From a virus: DNA of 64,000 bases. How positions within the stretch are numbered: the first letter of the stretch is position 1; each line of letters opens with the position of its first letter. The position numbers were made by a program, and so were the translations under genes. This document shows positions 5,164 through 48,357 of the stretch, in pieces. The notes beneath the pieces are model-generated. The model did not search any database and was not told the DNA's origin. It worked only from the letters and a program-made list of their open reading frames with translations. The stretch spans positions 1 through 64,000 of IMG/VR virus record IMGVR_UViG_3300028045_000010; one strand, written 5' to 3'.

Positions 5164-5736
5164 TTAAACAATTTCTTTAAATTGTTTTTTATCTTGTTTT
5201 TTCTTCTCTTTTCTTTCTTCCAAAACTCTTTGACAAGCTAAATCTATCATTTCAGAACTATCTAAAACTTTTTCCGCTCCATAGAATCTTAAATTATCAT
5301 TAAACTCTCTAGTATCTGCTGATTTTTTGCTTAAATTTGGACTTTCTAAAGTTCCCATATCTATCCCACAAAGAGCTTTGTCTAATTGAATTGTTTTATT
5401 TTTTTTATCCAAATCTTTCCATACATCATAAAAAACAGTAATTATATAGTCATACTCATCATTTACTGTCTTTTCGACTTCACTTCTCTTTATGAGAGAT
5501 GCTAATATAAATCTTCCACCTTCTTTTTTGGGGTTTTTTGTGCAGTATAAAAATTTAATTCTATTAGTTTCGATGTCAGCATTATGTACTGTTGTATCTT
5601 TTATTTGCTTTGATATAGGAGCCAACTCTTCATCAGCATCCATATATCCTTCAAAATCTGAAGGTAGTACTGGTGTGTTTTCGAAATTTGTGTTTTCGTT
5701 TAATTCTTCTGGTTTTGCAGTAATTTCTTGTGACAT
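5164..5736 (-). CDS. Putative phage metallopeptidase-fold protein lacking the HExxH-type zinc site
   Basis: 190 residues. The central region (about 58-130) reads like the phage putative-metallopeptidase family (Pfam PhageMetallopep type): RIKFLYCTKN, ASLIKRSEVEK, YDYIITVFYDVWKDL, then QLDKALCGIDMG. In that family the last segment is normally a DHELCH-type zinc-binding helix; here it is DKALCGID, so the two histidines and the acid are replaced. The visible conclusion is a family-like fold with a lost active site, hence perhaps a structural or regulatory derivative. N-terminus is acidic and disordered, C-terminus Lys-rich. Family call is from memory and moderately uncertain. Confidence 0.45.
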   Translation of the reverse strand: MSQEITAKPEELNENTNFENTPVLPSDFEGYMDADEELAPISKQIKDTTVHNADIETNRIKFLYCTKNPKKEGGRFILASLIKRSEVEKTVNDEYDYIITVFYDVWKDLDKKNKTIQLDKALCGIDMGTLESPNLSKKSADTREFNDNLRFYGAEKVLDSSEMIDLACQRVLEERKEKKKQDKKQFKEIV

Positions 5737-5805
5737 AGTTTATTTATTTGTTTATTATTCAATAATTTTAAACAAAAATATAAATAAAACTTTAAATAAT
5801 CAAAT

Positions 5806-6312
5806 TTATTTGTGAATTCTTGTATTTAATGGATTCATTAAATTTTTAGTTCTGATACCAGAAGCTCCTCTCACATTTTTACTAGTGTTGTTTTTGCTGT
5901 GTTTTTGAGAAATGATTTTTTCAGCCCAATTTTTGCCAACATCTCCTCCCCACAAATTCCAAGATTGTAATATTCCTGAATTTTCTACATTTTTACCTTT
6001 TACTTTTTCTGAATTTACCTCATCACAATGATTGTCAAAATAAGCTTTCATTCTTTTGACTTGAGCATGAGTCATAGATTTTTTATCACAAATAGACTTT
6101 GCTTTATTTTTACCAGAACCTTCATTTGGATTGTTATTGTCAATTAAGTTATTTGATGAAATTATTTCTAAAGCTTTTTTAGCTATAGATACCATTTCAT
6201 CTGTTGGGGTGAACTCTCCATTATACATATATCTAAAATCTTCTTTTAAAAGATTTTTAAATTCTTCTCGTATAATTTTTCTAATTTCATTCATTAGATT
6301 AGATTTAGTCAA
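5806..6312 (-). CDS. Probable virion protein with IIREE N-terminal motif and VKRMK/LWGGD domain
   Basis: 168 residues. The N-terminus (LMNEIRKIIREEFKNLLKED) belongs to the short amphipathic 'xIIKEE' segment shared by many proteins in this window. Residues about 78-135 carry MTHAQVKRMKAYFDNH followed by LQSWNLWGGDVGKNWAEKII, a pairing (VKRMK..FxxH...LWGGDxGxxWA) that I recognise as recurrent in tailed-phage proteins of unknown function. The start overlaps the end of the preceding gene by 8 bases, indicating an operon. Inference: an internal or packaged virion protein. Confidence 0.55.
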   Translation of the reverse strand: MTKSNLMNEIRKIIREEFKNLLKEDFRYMYNGEFTPTDEMVSIAKKALEIISSNNLIDNNNPNEGSGKNKAKSICDKKSMTHAQVKRMKAYFDNHCDEVNSEKVKGKNVENSGILQSWNLWGGDVGKNWAEKIISQKHSKNNTSKNVRGASGIRTKNLMNPLNTRIHK

Positions 6313-8026: not shown

Positions 8027-10459
8027 ATGGAAGTAATTTTACCAGGAGATACCCCCAATGAGGGGAGAGTTAAAATAAACAGAGCTATAAGCGACCTTTT
8101 AAGTGGTAGTTCAATAACTCAAGGAGGAACAAACATCAATACCGTTTCTGGCACTACTCTGTTAGTCCCTTTGTATACTATAAATCTAGATGATGATATT
8201 TCTCTAAATTCTGTTTCTTCAACTACATTAAGTGGTGGAACACTATATTCTGGTTCAACTGATTTATCTAGTATATTTCTCACAACAGCAGACGGCAACG
8301 ATATTACAAGATTATCAGGTGGCACAAATATATCAACTGGTGGCACTGTAAACAATCCTATTATTAACCTTGATGATGACATTTCATTAAATTCTGTTTC
8401 TGCAACGACGCTAAGTGGCGGAACTATATATTCAGGAGGGACAGACCTTTATAATATTTTCTCAACTAGTGGTGGTGGTGGTGGTGGACTTTGGTCTGCC
8501 AGTACGGGTACCGATGCTATAATTATGCTTAATGGCGGTAGTATAGCTTCAGGAGTATTAGCTGTTGCCGAAGGAACTAACACAACTGCAAGTGGAGATT
8601 ATTCTCATGCTGAAGGGCTTAATACAACTGCAACAGGTTCAACAGCACATGCTGAAGGAACTAACACAACTGCAAGTGGAGATTATTCTCATGCTGAGGG
8701 GAGCAGTTCAACTGCTAGTGGATTCGCTTCTCATGCTGAAGGAAGGACTACAGTTGCAAGTGGATTTTATTCTCATTCAGAAGGTGGTACTACAGTTGCA
8801 AGTGGAGATTATTCTCATGCTGAGGGAAATGACGCATTAGCTTCTGGCGGCACATCTCACGCTGAAGGAAGTGGTACAGTTGCAGGTGGAGACGCTTCTC
8901 ATGCAGAAGGAAAAAGTACAGAAACAATCGGACTCGCTTCTCATGCAGAGGGAGAAAATACAATTGCAAAAGGAACGCATTCTCATGCTGAAGGGGTTGA
9001 CACTAATGCATTTGGAAGCGCCTCCCACGCTGAAGGGAATACGACATCTGCAGATGGGAACGACTCCCATGCCGAAGGGCTTGAAACAACTGCAAGTGGA
9101 AATCAATCTCATGCTGAAGGTTATAATACAAATGCTAACAAAACTTATTCTCACGCTGAAGGGAATACGACAACTGCTAGTGGAATCGCTTCTCATGCAG
9201 AGGGTACTAGTACAATTGCTAGTGGAGCAAATGCTCATGCAGAAGGGCTTGAAACAACTGCAATTGGAGCAAATGCTCATGCTGAGGGGGAAACCACAAA
9301 TGCAAGTGGAGACTCTTCTCATGCTGAAGGGCTTAATACAACTGCAATTGGATTTCCTTCTCATGCAGAGGGGAAAAACACAAATGCAAGTGGAGACGCT
9401 TCTCATGCTGAGGGAAGTGGCACATTAGCTTCTGGCACTACATCTCACGCTGAAGGAAGTGGTACAGTTGCAGGCGGAACATACTCTCACGCTGAGGGAA
9501 GTGGCACATTAGCTTCTGGCAGTACATCTCACGCTGAAGGGCTTAATACAACTGCAGTTGGAGCAAATGCTCATGCTGAGGGAAGTGGCACATTAGCTTC
9601 TGGCAGTACATCTCACGCTGAAGGGCTTAATACAATTGCTAGTGGAGCAAATGCTCATGCAGAAGGGCGCAGTTCAACTGCTAGTGGAGGAGCTTCTCAT
9701 GCAGAGGGGAGTGGTGTGGCAAGTGGAGCAAATGCTCATGCTGAGGGGAGCAACACACTTGCAAGTGGACAGCATTCTCATGCTGAAGGAAGGAGTACAG
9801 TTGCAAGTGGATATTATTCTCATGCTGGTGGTAATAGTACAATTGCAAGCGGAGTGTGTTCTCATGCTGGTGGTAGTGGCTCAACAGTAAGTGGTGAATC
9901 ATCATTTATACATTCTACAAATTCATTAGTAACGGGTGATAGGAGTGCTGTTTTAGGAGGTCAAAACATAACTGGAGCTACTGATGACACAGTTTATGTG
10001 CCAAATTTGTTTTCCGTTGGAAAAATGACTGGGACTTACAATTATGTAACAGTAGACAATTCTATAAGTAGAGAGATAGTTTTAGATGAATCTGTATATC
10101 CTAGTAATACTTTGTTCTATATTGATTTGTCAAATGCTACAAATAATATAACATTTCTTTATGATGGAGTCTTAAAGCCACTAACTTTTGGTACAGAATA
10201 TGTTTTTGTTATAGGAAGTAGTGTTGGCTCAGGAGCTGAACTTTTCTTTGATGTATCTAATGGTGAAAATCCATATTATGGCACTGTTACAGCTAGTGAC
10301 GGCACTAAGGCTATTAGAAATTATAGTACAATAGAATTTAATTATGATGTATCAAATACACATGTAGGAGCAAAAATAACATTACTATCTGTCGCAGAAG
10401 AATATATCAGCTCTATTGTAGATACTACAGGGTTGGTAGCAGGTGTTGTACTTGCTTAA
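8027..10459 (+). CDS. Tail fibre with YadA-head-type repeats, 810 aa
   Basis: Probable trimeric receptor-binding fibre. Residues 1-30 (LPGDTPNEGRVKINRAISDL) match the N-termini of the three fibres at 48-54 kb (GDxxNEGRxKIN), so this is probably a common tail-attachment domain. Two copies of a NLDDDISLNSVS segment lie at about 53 and 112. From about 180 to 622 there are roughly 32 tandem 14-residue units of the form HAEGxxTxASGxxS, the head-domain repeat of trimeric autotransporter adhesins, which folds as a left-handed beta-roll. This ends in RSAVLGGQNITG, and the last 150 residues form a distinct globular tip, the likely receptor-binding part. It lacks the Peptidase_G2 end seen in its relatives. 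It is separated from them by 38 kb. Confidence 0.88.
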   Translation: MEVILPGDTPNEGRVKINRAISDLLSGSSITQGGTNINTVSGTTLLVPLYTINLDDDISLNSVSSTTLSGGTLYSGSTDLSSIFLTTADGNDITRLSGGTNISTGGTVNNPIINLDDDISLNSVSATTLSGGTIYSGGTDLYNIFSTSGGGGGGLWSASTGTDAIIMLNGGSIASGVLAVAEGTNTTASGDYSHAEGLNTTATGSTAHAEGTNTTASGDYSHAEGSSSTASGFASHAEGRTTVASGFYSHSEGGTTVASGDYSHAEGNDALASGGTSHAEGSGTVAGGDASHAEGKSTETIGLASHAEGENTIAKGTHSHAEGVDTNAFGSASHAEGNTTSADGNDSHAEGLETTASGNQSHAEGYNTNANKTYSHAEGNTTTASGIASHAEGTSTIASGANAHAEGLETTAIGANAHAEGETTNASGDSSHAEGLNTTAIGFPSHAEGKNTNASGDASHAEGSGTLASGTTSHAEGSGTVAGGTYSHAEGSGTLASGSTSHAEGLNTTAVGANAHAEGSGTLASGSTSHAEGLNTIASGANAHAEGRSSTASGGASHAEGSGVASGANAHAEGSNTLASGQHSHAEGRSTVASGYYSHAGGNSTIASGVCSHAGGSGSTVSGESSFIHSTNSLVTGDRSAVLGGQNITGATDDTVYVPNLFSVGKMTGTYNYVTVDNSISREIVLDESVYPSNTLFYIDLSNATNNITFLYDGVLKPLTFGTEYVFVIGSSVGSGAELFFDVSNGENPYYGTVTASDGTKAIRNYSTIEFNYDVSNTHVGAKITLLSVAEEYISSIVDTTGLVAGVVLA
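8566..9893 (+). repeat. Tandem 42-bp coding repeats (about 32 units)
   Basis: In-frame degenerate repeats encoding the HAEGxxTxASG units of the fibre. Units near 9400-9640 are nearly identical at base level (alternating SGTLASGSTS and LNTTA/LNTIA units), which points to recent recombination. One unit at about 9711-9750 is three bases shorter. The absence of stops in other frames produces long spurious reading frames on both strands here. Confidence 0.9.
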
Positions 10460-22013: not shown

Positions 22014-22067
22014 ACCTAATCTTTTTTATAAATATAACTTACTTTTTACTGTTTTAAAAATTTTTTG

Positions 22068-22146
22068 TTGCGATTTCAAGATTCGAACTTGACAGGGGGA
22101 TATCTCCCAAAAAGGCTCATGAGACCTTCCTTACACCATTATCGCA
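22068..22146 (-). tRNA. Atypical tRNA-like gene with CAT anticodon loop and long variable arm
   Basis: Acceptor arms TGCGAT / ATCGCA, T-arm TCAAG-TTCGAAT-CTTGA and anticodon stem AAGGT-CTCATGA-GCCTT are clear. Two things are odd: only about 12 bases lie between acceptor and anticodon stem, so no normal D-arm can form, and the variable region is long with a GGGA/TCCC hairpin although CAT is normally read by class I Met/Ile tRNAs. It may be a degenerate gene or a special RNA. The acceptor nearly equals that of the tRNA at 22242. Confidence 0.5.
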
Positions 22147-22315: not shown

Positions 22316-22323
22316 ATAAAGTA

Positions 22324-22409
22324 ATGCTATGTGTGGCTCCATCGGTCTCTGCTCCTTTACCGCAGATTTAAATAACTGGGGCAGACATTGTACCACATAC
22401 ATATAGCAT
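22324..22409 (-). ncRNA. Unassigned structured RNA in tRNA cluster
   Basis: An 86-nt element of tRNA size with closing stem ATGCTAT / ATAGCAT and a second stem TGTGG / CCACA inside it, then GT..CTGC / GCAG..AC and a hairpin CC-CAG / CTG-CGG with A/T loop. There is no T-loop (TTCRA) or D-arm, so it is not a normal tRNA. Strand assumed from its neighbours. It may be a tRNA relic or a separate stable RNA like T4 RNAs C and D. Confidence 0.5.
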
Positions 22410-22415
22410 CACTAG

Positions 22416-22733: not shown

Positions 22734-22740
22734 ATAATTG

Positions 22741-22815
22741 GGTAGGAAATGAGATTCGAACTCACGACCCTCGACACCACAAATCGATGCTCTAACCAAC
22801 TGAGCTATTCCTACC
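22741..22815 (-). tRNA. tRNA-His (GTG)
   Basis: Acceptor GTAGGAA / TTCCTAC with the extra G at -1 opposite C73, the identity feature of tRNA-His. D-arm GCTCAGTTGGTTAGAGC, anticodon loop TTGTGGT in stem TCGAT/GTCGA, T-arm GTGAG-TTCGAAT-CTCAT. Confidence 0.93.
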
Positions 22816-22820
22816 ATATA

Positions 22821-23041
22821 TGTCTACGGAAATTATACTAGTAATTTCGTGCTCTACCAATTGAGCTATCTCCCCATTTTATATGCATTCACGTATGTAT
22901 AATATACCCGTTTGGGTATAATTTTATATGCATTCACGTATAATATACCCGTTTGGGTATATTTTGTGGGGAGAGTAGGATTCGAACCTACACACCGTCG
23001 TTTACAGCGAATAGAAGTATCTAAATATATAGCCGTAGACA
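22821..23041 (-). tRNA. Circularly permuted tRNA-Tyr (GTA): 3' half precedes 5' half
   Basis: In minus-strand order, 23010-22967 encodes the tRNA 3' half (TCG-CTGTAAA-CGACG anticodon arm, T-arm GTAGG-TTCGAAT-CCTAC, acceptor TCTCCCC, A73), and 22875-22848 encodes the 5' half (acceptor GGGGAGA, D-arm GCTCAATTGGTAGAGC, A, CG). Joined between positions 28 and 29 they give a 72-nt cloverleaf with perfect 7-bp acceptor and perfect anticodon stem CGTCG/CGACG, anticodon GTA. Neither half has a partner in normal order. The extensions beyond the two halves are complementary (CCGTAGACA at 22829-22821 with TGTCTACGG at 23041-23033, plus AGTAT/ATACT), so they would hold the ends together for joining. Class I variable loop, unlike usual bacterial tRNA-Tyr. 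Confidence 0.85.
22876..22966 (-). repeat. Two direct repeats with hairpins between the halves of the permuted tRNA
   Basis: Two copies of about 41-45 bases. Each has a hairpin TATACCC-AAAC-GGGTATA followed by TTATACGTGAATGCATATAAAA. They fill the spacer between A73 of the 3' half and G1 of the 5' half and differ mainly by a 4-base insertion. They may help the end processing that opens the circle, or be a recent duplication. Confidence 0.8.
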
Positions 23042-23075
23042 ATATTTTAATTTCAAAGAACGTTTTCTTTTTCTG

Positions 23076-23148
23076 TCCCCCCGACAAGATTCGAACTTGT
23101 GACTTTCCGCTTAAAAGGCGGAAGCTCTACCAGCTGAGCTACGAGGGA
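23076..23148 (-). tRNA. tRNA-Lys (TTT)
   Basis: Acceptor TCCCTCG / CGGGGGG (G-T pairs at 1-72 and 5-68), D-arm GCTCAGCTGGTAGAGC, anticodon loop CTTTTAA in stem TCCGC/GCGGA, T-arm ACAAG-TTCGAAT-CTTGT, discriminator A. Confidence 0.92.
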
Positions 23149-23472: not shown

Positions 23473-23563
23473 TGGCGGAAAGTGGAGGAACCGACCCCCA
23501 GACAACTTAATGCCCTACAGTTTTCAAGACTGCCCGCCCTCCAATAGAGCTGCTTCACTTTCC
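23473..23563 (-). tRNA. tRNA-Ser (TGA), with encoded CCA and unusual T-loop
   Basis: Acceptor GGAAAGTG / CACTTTCC (8 bp possible), G73 and an encoded CCA, the only one in the cluster. Anticodon loop CTTGAAA in stem GCAGT/ACTGT gives TGA. A long variable arm GGCA/TGTC fits Ser. The T-arm GGGGG-TCGGTT-CCTCC has a 6-base loop without the TTCRA consensus. The 8-bp acceptor recalls tRNA-Sec, but that would need anticodon TCA. Confidence 0.75.
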
Positions 23564-46875: not shown

Positions 46876-48357
46876 ATGCCTATAAATAAAATTATAACAT
46901 CTAGGACAATTGGTGAAAGCGATGGTATTTCTCAAGTATTTATACAAAATAATATACCTAAAATATTAGAACCATTAGTTGAGCCTAAAATATTTAATTT
47001 ACCTCTTTATAACTTAGAGGGAGCTACTTTTAAATATTATCAACAAGTAGTTGATGGTATTTCTGTAAATGTAAATAATGAAAAAACATTAACATATGAC
47101 TATACGGCAAACACAACTTCCTTTAGTTCTATTACTAATGTTATTTATGATATTTATAGAGTAGATTTTCCTACATACGATGCAGTTTCAAACGACTTAA
47201 ATGAAAATAGTCTTACAGGTTCTACTGGATTTACTCCCACATTAGAGACTATATCATCTCTGTTGGCAACTCCTTTAGCTACTATTTATGAAACTGGTGA
47301 TACAATATCTACCCCTACTCACATTGTTTCGCTTCCTGAAATTATAAAGCCAATAGGTGGTTTTGCTGAACAATTACTCTTAGATAAAGCACAATATTTT
47401 ATAGATACAAGATATGAATTTATTCAAGAAAGAGATAAGACACTAGGTGGATTTGAGACGTTTAGTGGAGGTTCAGTTGTTGATTTTTCATATTCTGGTC
47501 TTAATTCAGATGGAAACTTTTTAATTACAACACAAAAAGATGAAACGATAATTAGTGGAGGAACATATTCTGGCTTAACTACCAATGGAGCTATATTTAC
47601 TTATTTTTCAGCGCCGCAAAAACCAAATATAGACGTAATAGATGATGCGCCAACTGTAATTGGACAATTAGATACTTTTTCACCTATTTTTAGTTTTAAC
47701 AACGTTTCTGATGGTGATTACTATAAGCTTCAAGTTACTTACGACTTATCAGATGCTACATTTTTAAGCGCATTTACTTTTAATATAGACCGCCAACCTG
47801 GTATAGCTGATTTTATAAGAACGCACTCTGTAACATTGTCTCCAGACTCTTCTTTTTTATATAGATTTGGCAATACTAAAGAGGTTATAAATGTATTTGG
47901 AGTAAAGCAAAATGTAACTAACTGGGGCAGAAGCGAAACTGCTATAACAGATACAGACGGAATTTATACAGTGCAAGGAACTGTTTATCAAGATTATAAT
48001 TATGGGTGTCCAGTTTCTGGGGCGACTGTTGTATTTACAGTCTCATTAACTACAGCAACATTAGAGGTTGGAGTTGATACAACAACTGATATTTCAATTG
48101 CTGCAGGAACTAATGAGCCTATAGGTGGAGGTGTTGGTACGAGCTTTTCTGCTTTAACAGATTCTAGTGGTAATTATACTGTTAGCAATGTTGCTGGCGG
48201 TAGTGGAATAGTTACTGTTACAAAGTTCGGGTATGATGATACTCCTCAACCTTATGATATAGATGGAGATACTGTAGGTCTTGACTTAACAATAAACCTA
48301 CTATGGAGTAGTACAGGTACAACATTTGCAGATGTAGGAGAATGTATTTTTGTATAA
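46876..48357 (+). CDS. Tail protein with carboxypeptidase-regulatory-like domain, 493 aa
   Basis: N-terminal 350 residues are beta-rich and unassigned (RTIGESDGISQVFIQNNIPK; PIGGFAEQLLLDKAQYFIDT). The C-terminus from about 370 is an Ig/transthyretin-like domain: GIYTVQGTVYQDYNYGCPVS, GATVVF, TDSSGNYTVSNVAGGSGIVT and VTKFGYDD, typical of CarboxypepD_reg repeats used for carbohydrate or surface contacts. It links the baseplate protein and the fibre genes in one transcript, so probably a fibre base or adaptor. Confidence 0.6.
   Translation: MPINKIITSRTIGESDGISQVFIQNNIPKILEPLVEPKIFNLPLYNLEGATFKYYQQVVDGISVNVNNEKTLTYDYTANTTSFSSITNVIYDIYRVDFPTYDAVSNDLNENSLTGSTGFTPTLETISSLLATPLATIYETGDTISTPTHIVSLPEIIKPIGGFAEQLLLDKAQYFIDTRYEFIQERDKTLGGFETFSGGSVVDFSYSGLNSDGNFLITTQKDETIISGGTYSGLTTNGAIFTYFSAPQKPNIDVIDDAPTVIGQLDTFSPIFSFNNVSDGDYYKLQVTYDLSDATFLSAFTFNIDRQPGIADFIRTHSVTLSPDSSFLYRFGNTKEVINVFGVKQNVTNWGRSETAITDTDGIYTVQGTVYQDYNYGCPVSGATVVFTVSLTTATLEVGVDTTTDISIAAGTNEPIGGGVGTSFSALTDSSGNYTVSNVAGGSGIVTVTKFGYDDTPQPYDIDGDTVGLDLTINLLWSSTGTTFADVGECIFV

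What the first reader, a model, noticed from the sequence alone, without database searches (positions are those of the whole stretch)
22821..23041. Circularly permuted tRNA-Tyr gene in a phage
The 3' half of a tRNA (anticodon arm, T-arm, 3' acceptor) is encoded upstream of its 5' half (5' acceptor, D-arm). Neither half has a partner in the normal order, yet together they give a perfect cloverleaf: acceptor GGGGAGA/TCTCCCC and anticodon stem CGTCG/CGACG with the joint between bases 28 and 29. The flanking extensions pair over 9 bp (CCGTAGACA/TGTCTACGG) plus AGTAT/ATACT, which would hold the ends to be joined. Permuted tRNA genes are known from some algal nuclei and an archaeon; I know of none in a bacteriophage. 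Maturation would need cutting of the extensions, ligation at 28/29, and opening of the circle by RNase P and a 3' nuclease. It also has a short variable loop although bacterial tRNA-Tyr is class II.
Basis: partly seen in the sequence, partly recalled or inferred. Interest (0 to 1): 0.97.

Follow-up and report, generated by a model that had tools for sequence, protein, structure and literature searches.

The report
Phage RNA with permuted tRNA body
In this virus of bacteria the two halves of a tRNA-like RNA are encoded in swapped order; many other phages carry RNAs with the same layout, most of them beside a gene for the RNA-binding protein Ro60, so this is more likely a tRNA-mimicking regulatory RNA of the Y-RNA kind, with an unusually complete tRNA body, than an ordinary tRNA gene waiting to be re-joined.

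Summary
On the minus strand, inside a tRNA array, the 3' half of a tRNA (23010-22965) precedes its 5' half (22875-22848). Joined at 28/29 they give a perfect tRNA-Tyr(GUA) cloverleaf, and the flanks pair over 9 bp. It is absent from two close relatives (91%/85% DNA identity on either side). It is not unique. A purpose-built search of phage contigs found about 57 similar loci, also in isolated Caulobacter phages. Most share a flanking stem, [P1a]-UAGURA-[P1b]-UUACUUCG ... [P1b']-AAUUUUCU-[P1a']. Of 23 contigs with this type, 21 encode Ro60 (TROVE), often within a few kb; controls 2 of 10. RNA ligases are not enriched. One Ro60 locus also holds the stem without a tRNA body. Many copies duplicate a normal tRNA; some have unusable anticodon loops. 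These are therefore Y RNAs of the YrlA kind (tRNA mimics), unusual in keeping an anticodon arm. The window element has the same architecture and weak motif matches (p about 0.03 each), but no Ro60 in its 72-kb record and a longer linker. Best reading: Y-RNA-like tRNA mimic (0.5). A genuine permuted tRNA matured by ligation remains possible (0.24).

The parts
22965..23010 (-). 3' half of the tRNA body: positions 29-31, anticodon loop CTGTAAA (GTA), 39-43, 4-nt variable loop, T-arm, 3' acceptor strand TCTCCCC, A73, CA
22848..22875 (-). 5' half of the tRNA body: 5' acceptor strand GGGGAGA, T8 A9, D-arm with GG, A26, C27 G28
22876..22964 (-). linker closing the acceptor stem: two near-identical repeats, each with hairpin ATATACCC-AAAC-GGGTATAT and GTGAATGCATAT; much longer than in the other permuted loci (0-27 nt)
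23033..23041 (-). 5' strand of the terminal stem (TGTCTACGG)
   Evidence: pairs with 22821-22829
22821..22829 (-). 3' strand of the terminal stem (CCGTAGACA)
23013..23019 (-). UACUUCU, partial match to the conserved UUACUUCG just before the 3' half in related loci
   Evidence: p = 0.028 against shuffles
22828..22835 (-). UAAUUUCC directly before stem strand GUAGACA, partial match to the conserved AAUUUUCU of related loci
   Evidence: p = 0.039
22835..22839 (-).
   Evidence: sequence; the MFE fold prefers a local hairpin of the 3' flank
23075..23148 (-). tRNA-Lys(TTT), normal neighbour upstream
22740..22814 (-). tRNA-His(GTG), normal neighbour downstream

Best explanation
The block encodes a non-coding RNA of Y-RNA (YrlA-like) architecture: its two ends pair into a terminal stem, and the loop of that stem is a tRNA body whose opening lies in the anticodon stem and whose acceptor stem is closed by a linker. 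Seen as a tRNA gene it is circularly permuted; seen as a Y RNA it is a tRNA-mimic domain held out by a protein-binding stem. It most likely acts uncut at the anticodon, as a tether or decoy that looks like tRNA to tRNA-binding enzymes while the stem binds a Ro60-type or other RNA-binding protein. Shown: the layout, the pairing, the recurrence in other phages, the association of that recurrence with Ro60. Inferred: that the window copy belongs to this kind, and its partner protein, which is not in the 72-kb record (a host protein or the unsequenced rest of the genome).
For: Same architecture in about 57 phage loci; own flanks pair better than swapped flanks (0 of 100,000 permutations, partly GC-driven; longest helix 7.6 vs 6.2 in shuffles, Fisher 7e-8). 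Conserved stem UAGURA / UUACUUCG / AAUUUUCU emerges around independently found helices. Ro60/TROVE in 21 of 23 contigs with the UUACUUCG type against 2 of 10 controls; permuted element on the same strand within about 4 kb of TROVE in 13 of 17 loci; CcrColossus carries two directly upstream of its TROVE-like gene gp139. The stem also occurs without a tRNA body beside a Ro60 gene (L606). Rfam YrlA matches the tRNA bodies below threshold. YrlA in the literature: stem from both ends plus tRNA-like domain, bound by Rsr/Ro60 (PMC8394870). Redundancy with normal isoacceptors in G034, G053, G030, G033; 8-nt or U33-less anticodon loops in L507, L522. Window: both motif remnants and the stem in the right places; class I body, while the close relative has a normal class II tRNA-Tyr in its second array.
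Against: No TROVE gene in the window's 72-kb record, in G001 (79 kb), in G006 (217 kb) or in about 20 other relatives. Motif matches in the window are weak (p 0.028 and 0.039). Its linker is 85-89 nt against 0-27 nt elsewhere. Its anticodon arm is perfect, which a mere mimic would not need; the YrlA consensus lacks an anticodon hairpin. It lies in a tRNA array, not next to a Ro60 gene.
Confidence: 0.5

Rival explanations
1. A genuine circularly permuted tRNA-Tyr(GUA) gene. The flanks pair, the extensions are cut off, the ends 28 and 29 are ligated, and RNase P and a 3' nuclease open the circle at the acceptor stem to give a decoding tRNA.
For: Perfect joined cloverleaf with all invariant bases; the halves of related loci also fit (acceptor 7/7 in 52 of 57 own pairs, 46 of 3192 swapped pairs; anticodon arm perfect in 29 of 57 against 22% swapped); RNA ligase PF09414 in 17 of 37 and RtcB in 6 of 37 such contigs; some permuted tRNAs have no normal twin in the fetched sequence (Ile TAT in G026, Arg CCT in G043). 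Architecture equals that of algal and archaeal permuted genes (PMC3978253).
Against: Ligase is as common in control phages (8 of 17) and none is in the window record; many permuted copies duplicate a normal tRNA; some cannot decode; association is with Ro60 instead; class I body for Tyr; no bulge-helix-bulge motif was established; bacteria lack the tRNA-splicing endonuclease.
Confidence: 0.24
2. A relic: a tandemly duplicated tRNA gene lost its outer halves, and the flank pairing is coincidence or a trace of an insertion (the inverted repeats as ends of an inserted block).
For: The block 22821-23045 is an insertion or replacement relative to G001/G025, ending at the inverted repeats; that spacer holds what looks like a homing-endonuclease remnant in the relatives, so it is a rearrangement site.
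Against: Both breakpoints fall exactly at 28/29, every tRNA pair is intact, and the same layout recurs with pairing flanks in many unrelated phages.
Confidence: 0.15
3. A two-piece tRNA: RNase P and 3' processing remove the linker and the two halves work nicked at 28/29, held together by the 9-bp flank stem, as in two-piece tmRNA.
For: Needs only host RNase P and 3' processing; the flank stem would hold the pieces; permuted tmRNA is a known precedent (established knowledge).
Against: An extra helix at 28/29 in the anticodon stem should hinder use in the ribosome; nothing here tests it.
Confidence: 0.07
4. Assembly artefact that swapped the halves of a normal tRNA.
For: Single metagenomic record; reads not available.
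Against: Flanks pair exactly, the linker carries its own repeats, and the layout recurs in isolated, completely sequenced phages.
Confidence: 0.03

Closest known systems
YrlA, bacterial Y RNA (Rfam RF02553), partner of Ro60/Rsr
   Same: Ends pair into a long stem; tRNA-like domain with D-arm, T-arm and acceptor closed by a loop, order permuted so that the opening lies at the anticodon stem; found next to Ro60 genes (literature, PMC8394870; tested here for the phage loci).
   Different: YrlA consensus has no anticodon hairpin; the window and many of the phage loci do. Sub-threshold Rfam scores, flanks do not match RF02553. Window has no Ro60 gene in the available sequence and an 89-nt linker.
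Circularly permuted tRNA genes of Cyanidioschyzon, prasinophyte algae, a nucleomorph and Thermofilum pendens
   Same: 3' half before 5' half, pairing flanks, intact cloverleaf after joining.
   Different: Junctions there are at 20/21, 37/38, 50/51, 59/60 or 15/16 with a BHB motif for the splicing endonuclease (PMC3978253); here 28/29, no BHB motif established, and bacteria lack that enzyme. Linker 1-74 bp there, 89 here.
Permuted (two-piece) tmRNA, Rfam RF04321
   Same: Permuted tRNA-like ends joined by a removable loop.
   Different: No tag-peptide frame seen; only chance-level match in related loci.
Permuted group I or II introns (PIE)
   Same: Would place exon halves in reversed order.
   Different: Flanks of 55 and 33 nt are far too short for an intron core.

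Membership tests
YrlA / bacterial Y RNA | 5' and 3' ends pair into a stem carrying the Ro60-binding sequence | tested here: inconclusive
   9-bp stem present; UACUUCU and UAAUUUCC only partly match UUACUUCG and AAUUUUCU, p 0.028 and 0.039
YrlA / bacterial Y RNA | tRNA-like domain with D-, T- and acceptor arms, permuted | tested here: met
YrlA / bacterial Y RNA | gene for Ro60/Rsr (TROVE, PF05731) nearby | tested here: not met
   absent from G000 and its relatives; the record is a fragment
YrlA / bacterial Y RNA | match to Rfam RF02553 above gathering score 69 | tested here: not met
   no match at the window element; related phage loci 26-38 bits
YrlA / bacterial Y RNA | RNA is bound by Ro60 | not testable with these tools
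   needs pull-down
Circularly permuted tRNA gene | 3' half upstream of 5' half; joined cloverleaf intact | tested here: met
Circularly permuted tRNA gene | BHB motif at the junction | not tested
   no dedicated BHB search was run; the folded precursor shows no obvious one
Circularly permuted tRNA gene | circular intermediate and mature joined tRNA | not testable with these tools
   needs RNA from infected cells
Circularly permuted tRNA gene | ligase available | tested here: inconclusive
   none (PF09414) in the 72-kb record; frequent in related phages but equally in controls; host enzymes unknown

The most novel reading that the evidence does not exclude
Phages encode functional circularly permuted tRNAs that are cut out, ligated near 28/29 and opened to decoding tRNAs, the flanking Y-RNA-like stem being the processing signal; Ro60-bound Y RNAs would then have descended from, or still be, permuted tRNA precursors.
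Probability: 0.2. Interest if true: 0.93.

Novelty: new variant of a known kind. Interest (0 to 1): 0.72.

Why it matters
It links two things not connected in the papers I could read: permuted tRNA genes and the tRNA-mimicking Y RNAs of Ro60. The phage set gives dozens of Y-RNA-like RNAs, many of whose tRNA bodies still have an anticodon arm, several per genome, some in isolated phages such as CcrColossus, so whether Y RNAs arose by permutation of tRNA genes, and whether any is still matured into tRNA, becomes testable in a laboratory phage. A second set beside an unrelated conserved 667-aa protein suggests another RNP built on the same RNA plan.

Tried and rejected
Close relatives by helicase protein and by exact 3'-half pattern: none in IMG/VR. 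Blast of the locus and of three other permuted loci against named phages: no order-preserving hit. Group I/II permuted intron: flanks too short. RNA ligase as the shared partner: rejected as explanation because controls have it as often (8 of 17 against 17 of 37). Candidates discarded by eye: L272 (a normal tRNA missed by ARAGORN), L197, L179, L251 and low-scoring chance pairs. Megaphages LR756501/LR756508: lone T-arm hits but no convincing permuted pair. Structure of the type A neighbour protein: mean pLDDT 64, no significant PDB match; NCBIfam match to MXAN_6230/SCO0854 family, far below its cut-off. Covariance model not built: linker and stem lengths vary too much for a MAFFT alignment.

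Full report
What is there. The window is 64 kb of a 72,059-bp viral metagenome record (G000), a myovirus fragment whose nearest annotated relatives are phages of Flavobacterium and Microcystis and two megaphages, all at 27-29% protein identity. Between normal tRNA-Lys (23148-23075) and tRNA-His (22814-22740) on the minus strand lie the two halves of a tRNA in swapped order: 3' half 23010-22965, linker, 5' half 22875-22848. Joined at 28/29 they make a 73-nt tRNA-Tyr(GTA) with 7, 4, 5 and 5 perfect pairs, U8, G18G19, U33, A37 and T-loop TTCGAAT. The flanks pair over 9 bp. Two of 150 shuffled windows held any equally good permuted pair; given its place in the tRNA array this is no accident.

Comparison with close relatives. 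An alignment of SbcC-like proteins brought in phages with 40-64% identity there. Two of them, G001 and G025, align with the window array at 91% and 85% DNA identity on the two sides, but in place of 22821-23045 they have 62 nt. Read by eye in the printed DNA, that stretch ends in FENKYGVSDNAVRKWCKKYNILK-stop, the look of an HNH homing-endonuclease tail (the one frame I translated with a tool was not this one). G001 has a normal class II tRNA-Tyr in a second array. The permuted block is thus a recent insertion or replacement, and the class I 'Tyr' is not the lineage's usual tRNA-Tyr.

Survey. I wrote a finder for orphan 3' halves followed by orphan 5' halves with pairing acceptors. In 80 loci of relatives chosen by protein it found none. 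In two sets of about 120 phage loci each, chosen only for a common D-arm sequence, it found about 14 convincing permuted pairs. Their flanks pointed to a conserved motif, and two motif scans brought about 45 more. In all 57 loci passed manual screening. Own acceptor strands pair 7/7 in 52 of 57, swapped ones in 46 of 3192. Own flanks form better duplexes than swapped ones (0 of 100,000 permutations; part of this is shared GC content), and longer helices than shuffled ones (7.6 against 6.2, Fisher 7e-8). These numbers come from a set enriched by motif and are not a census.

Three kinds of flank. Type B (45 elements, 34 contigs): [P1a]-UAGURA or GCAG-[P1b]-UUACUUCG-3' half ... 5' half-[P1b']-AAUUUUCU-[P1a']. 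Type A: GCCAA-u-GC-UUAUUUCU ... GC-UUGGC, several copies per phage. Others, including TTACAGCAA elements in L193. Junctions are mostly 28/29, also 29/30, in the anticodon loop or in the variable region.

What type B is. Rfam's YrlA, a bacterial Y RNA with a tRNA-like domain, matches these tRNA bodies with 26-38 bits (cut-off 69) but not their stems, and its consensus has no anticodon hairpin. Caulobacter phages CcrColossus and CcrPW carry two such elements immediately upstream of a TROVE-like (Ro60) gene. TROVE is in 21 of 23 contigs with type B elements (one of them below the curated cut-off), 0 of 8 with type A, 2 of 10 control tRNA-rich phages. In one of those two controls the same stem lies beside TROVE without any tRNA body, as a Y RNA may (L606). 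In 13 of 17 TROVE loci a permuted element lies on the same strand within the fetched region, mostly within about 1.5 kb. RNA ligase PF09414 is in 17 of 37 permuted-tRNA contigs and in 8 of 17 controls, so it is not the partner. From the literature, YrlA is a stem of paired ends plus a tRNA-like domain, bound by Rsr/Ro60 and tethering PNPase (PMC8394870); I recall, without being able to read it here, that Chen et al. 2014 reported Y RNAs near Ro60 in bacterial and phage species. Type B elements are therefore best read as Y RNAs.

Do they decode? In G034, G053, G030 and G033 the permuted anticodon duplicates a normal tRNA of the same phage; in G026 (Ile TAT) and G043 (Arg CCT) it does not. Some bodies cannot decode: L507 has an 8-nt loop CTGGTTAA, L522 lacks U33. 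But 29 of 57 own pairs give a perfect anticodon arm against 22% of swapped pairs. So the anticodon arm is often kept, not always, and decoding is not the common denominator.

Type A. All type A phages examined carry, just upstream of the elements, a conserved 667-aa protein (48-81% identity) without Pfam match, with a partial match to NCBIfam MXAN_6230/SCO0854. The predicted model is of moderate confidence (pLDDT 64): helical repeats followed by a beta domain; no PDB match is significant. It may be another RNP partner; this is inference.

The window element. It shares architecture and junction with the phage set. UACUUCU lies where UUACUUCG is expected and UAAUUUCC directly before the stem strand GUAGACA (p 0.028 and 0.039), and the 9-bp stem has p 0.03 alone. 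It differs by a linker of 85-89 nt with two hairpin repeats (others 0-27 nt) and by the absence of TROVE, of the 667-aa protein and of RNA ligase PF09414 (the 667-aa protein was looked for in the window only); its relatives lack TROVE too. I therefore hold 'Y-RNA-like tRNA mimic' at 0.5, 'permuted tRNA gene' at 0.24, relic at 0.15.

Novelty. I found no report of permuted tRNA genes in phages or bacteria in the open papers I could search; the review lists algae and one archaeon (PMC3978253). As Y RNAs the class is known; bodies with a full acceptor and an anticodon arm, in many copies across phages and also without Ro60, are to my knowledge a new variant.

Noticed in passing
L532:8162-10165 and orthologs in L529, L530, L531, L533-L535, L539, L540, L296, L370: Conserved 667-aa protein directly upstream of type A permuted elements; no Pfam hit, weak NCBIfam MXAN_6230/SCO0854 match.
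   Followed up: partly
L606:5311-5400: Y-RNA-like stem (UAGUUGCGAUGCGGUGUAAUCGGUUACUUCG) without tRNA body beside a TROVE gene.
   Followed up: partly
L559 (CcrColossus JX100810) 5630-6300: Two permuted tRNA-like elements before gp139 (TROVE-like); the first is partly annotated as a 68-nt tRNA-Gln, the second not at all.
   Followed up: partly
L545, L558, L542 (Chitinophaga spp. genomes): Bacterial loci with the same UAGUAA..UUACUUCG element and YrlA-like short acceptor stems; the genomes also have TROVE genes.
   Followed up: partly
L193 minus strand 1577-1710: Two stand-alone stem elements (GGTTAGT-TCCAGCAAA..ACTAACC, GGATGC-ATACAGCAAA..GCATCC) with the motif seen before permuted halves in the same phage.
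   Followed up: no
L158 about 1430-1710 (G001 47929-48209): tRNA gene interrupted by a group I-like intron of about 220 nt in the close relative.
   Followed up: no
window 22320-22414, minus strand: Conserved sequence between tRNA-Phe and tRNA-Met that can form a long hairpin (ATGCTATATGTATGTGG..CCACACATAGCAT), also in G001/G025, no Rfam match.
   Followed up: no
window 22064-22143, minus strand: tRNA-like sequence (TTGCGAT..ATCGCAA) missed by the standard call, conserved in G001; odd D-arm and anticodon arm.
   Followed up: no
window 23477-23563, minus strand: Probable tRNA-Ser(TGA) ending in GCCA, not called by ARAGORN; weak Rfam tRNA-Sec hit.
   Followed up: no
window 8027-10459: Fibre-like protein with many HAEG repeats.
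   Followed up: no
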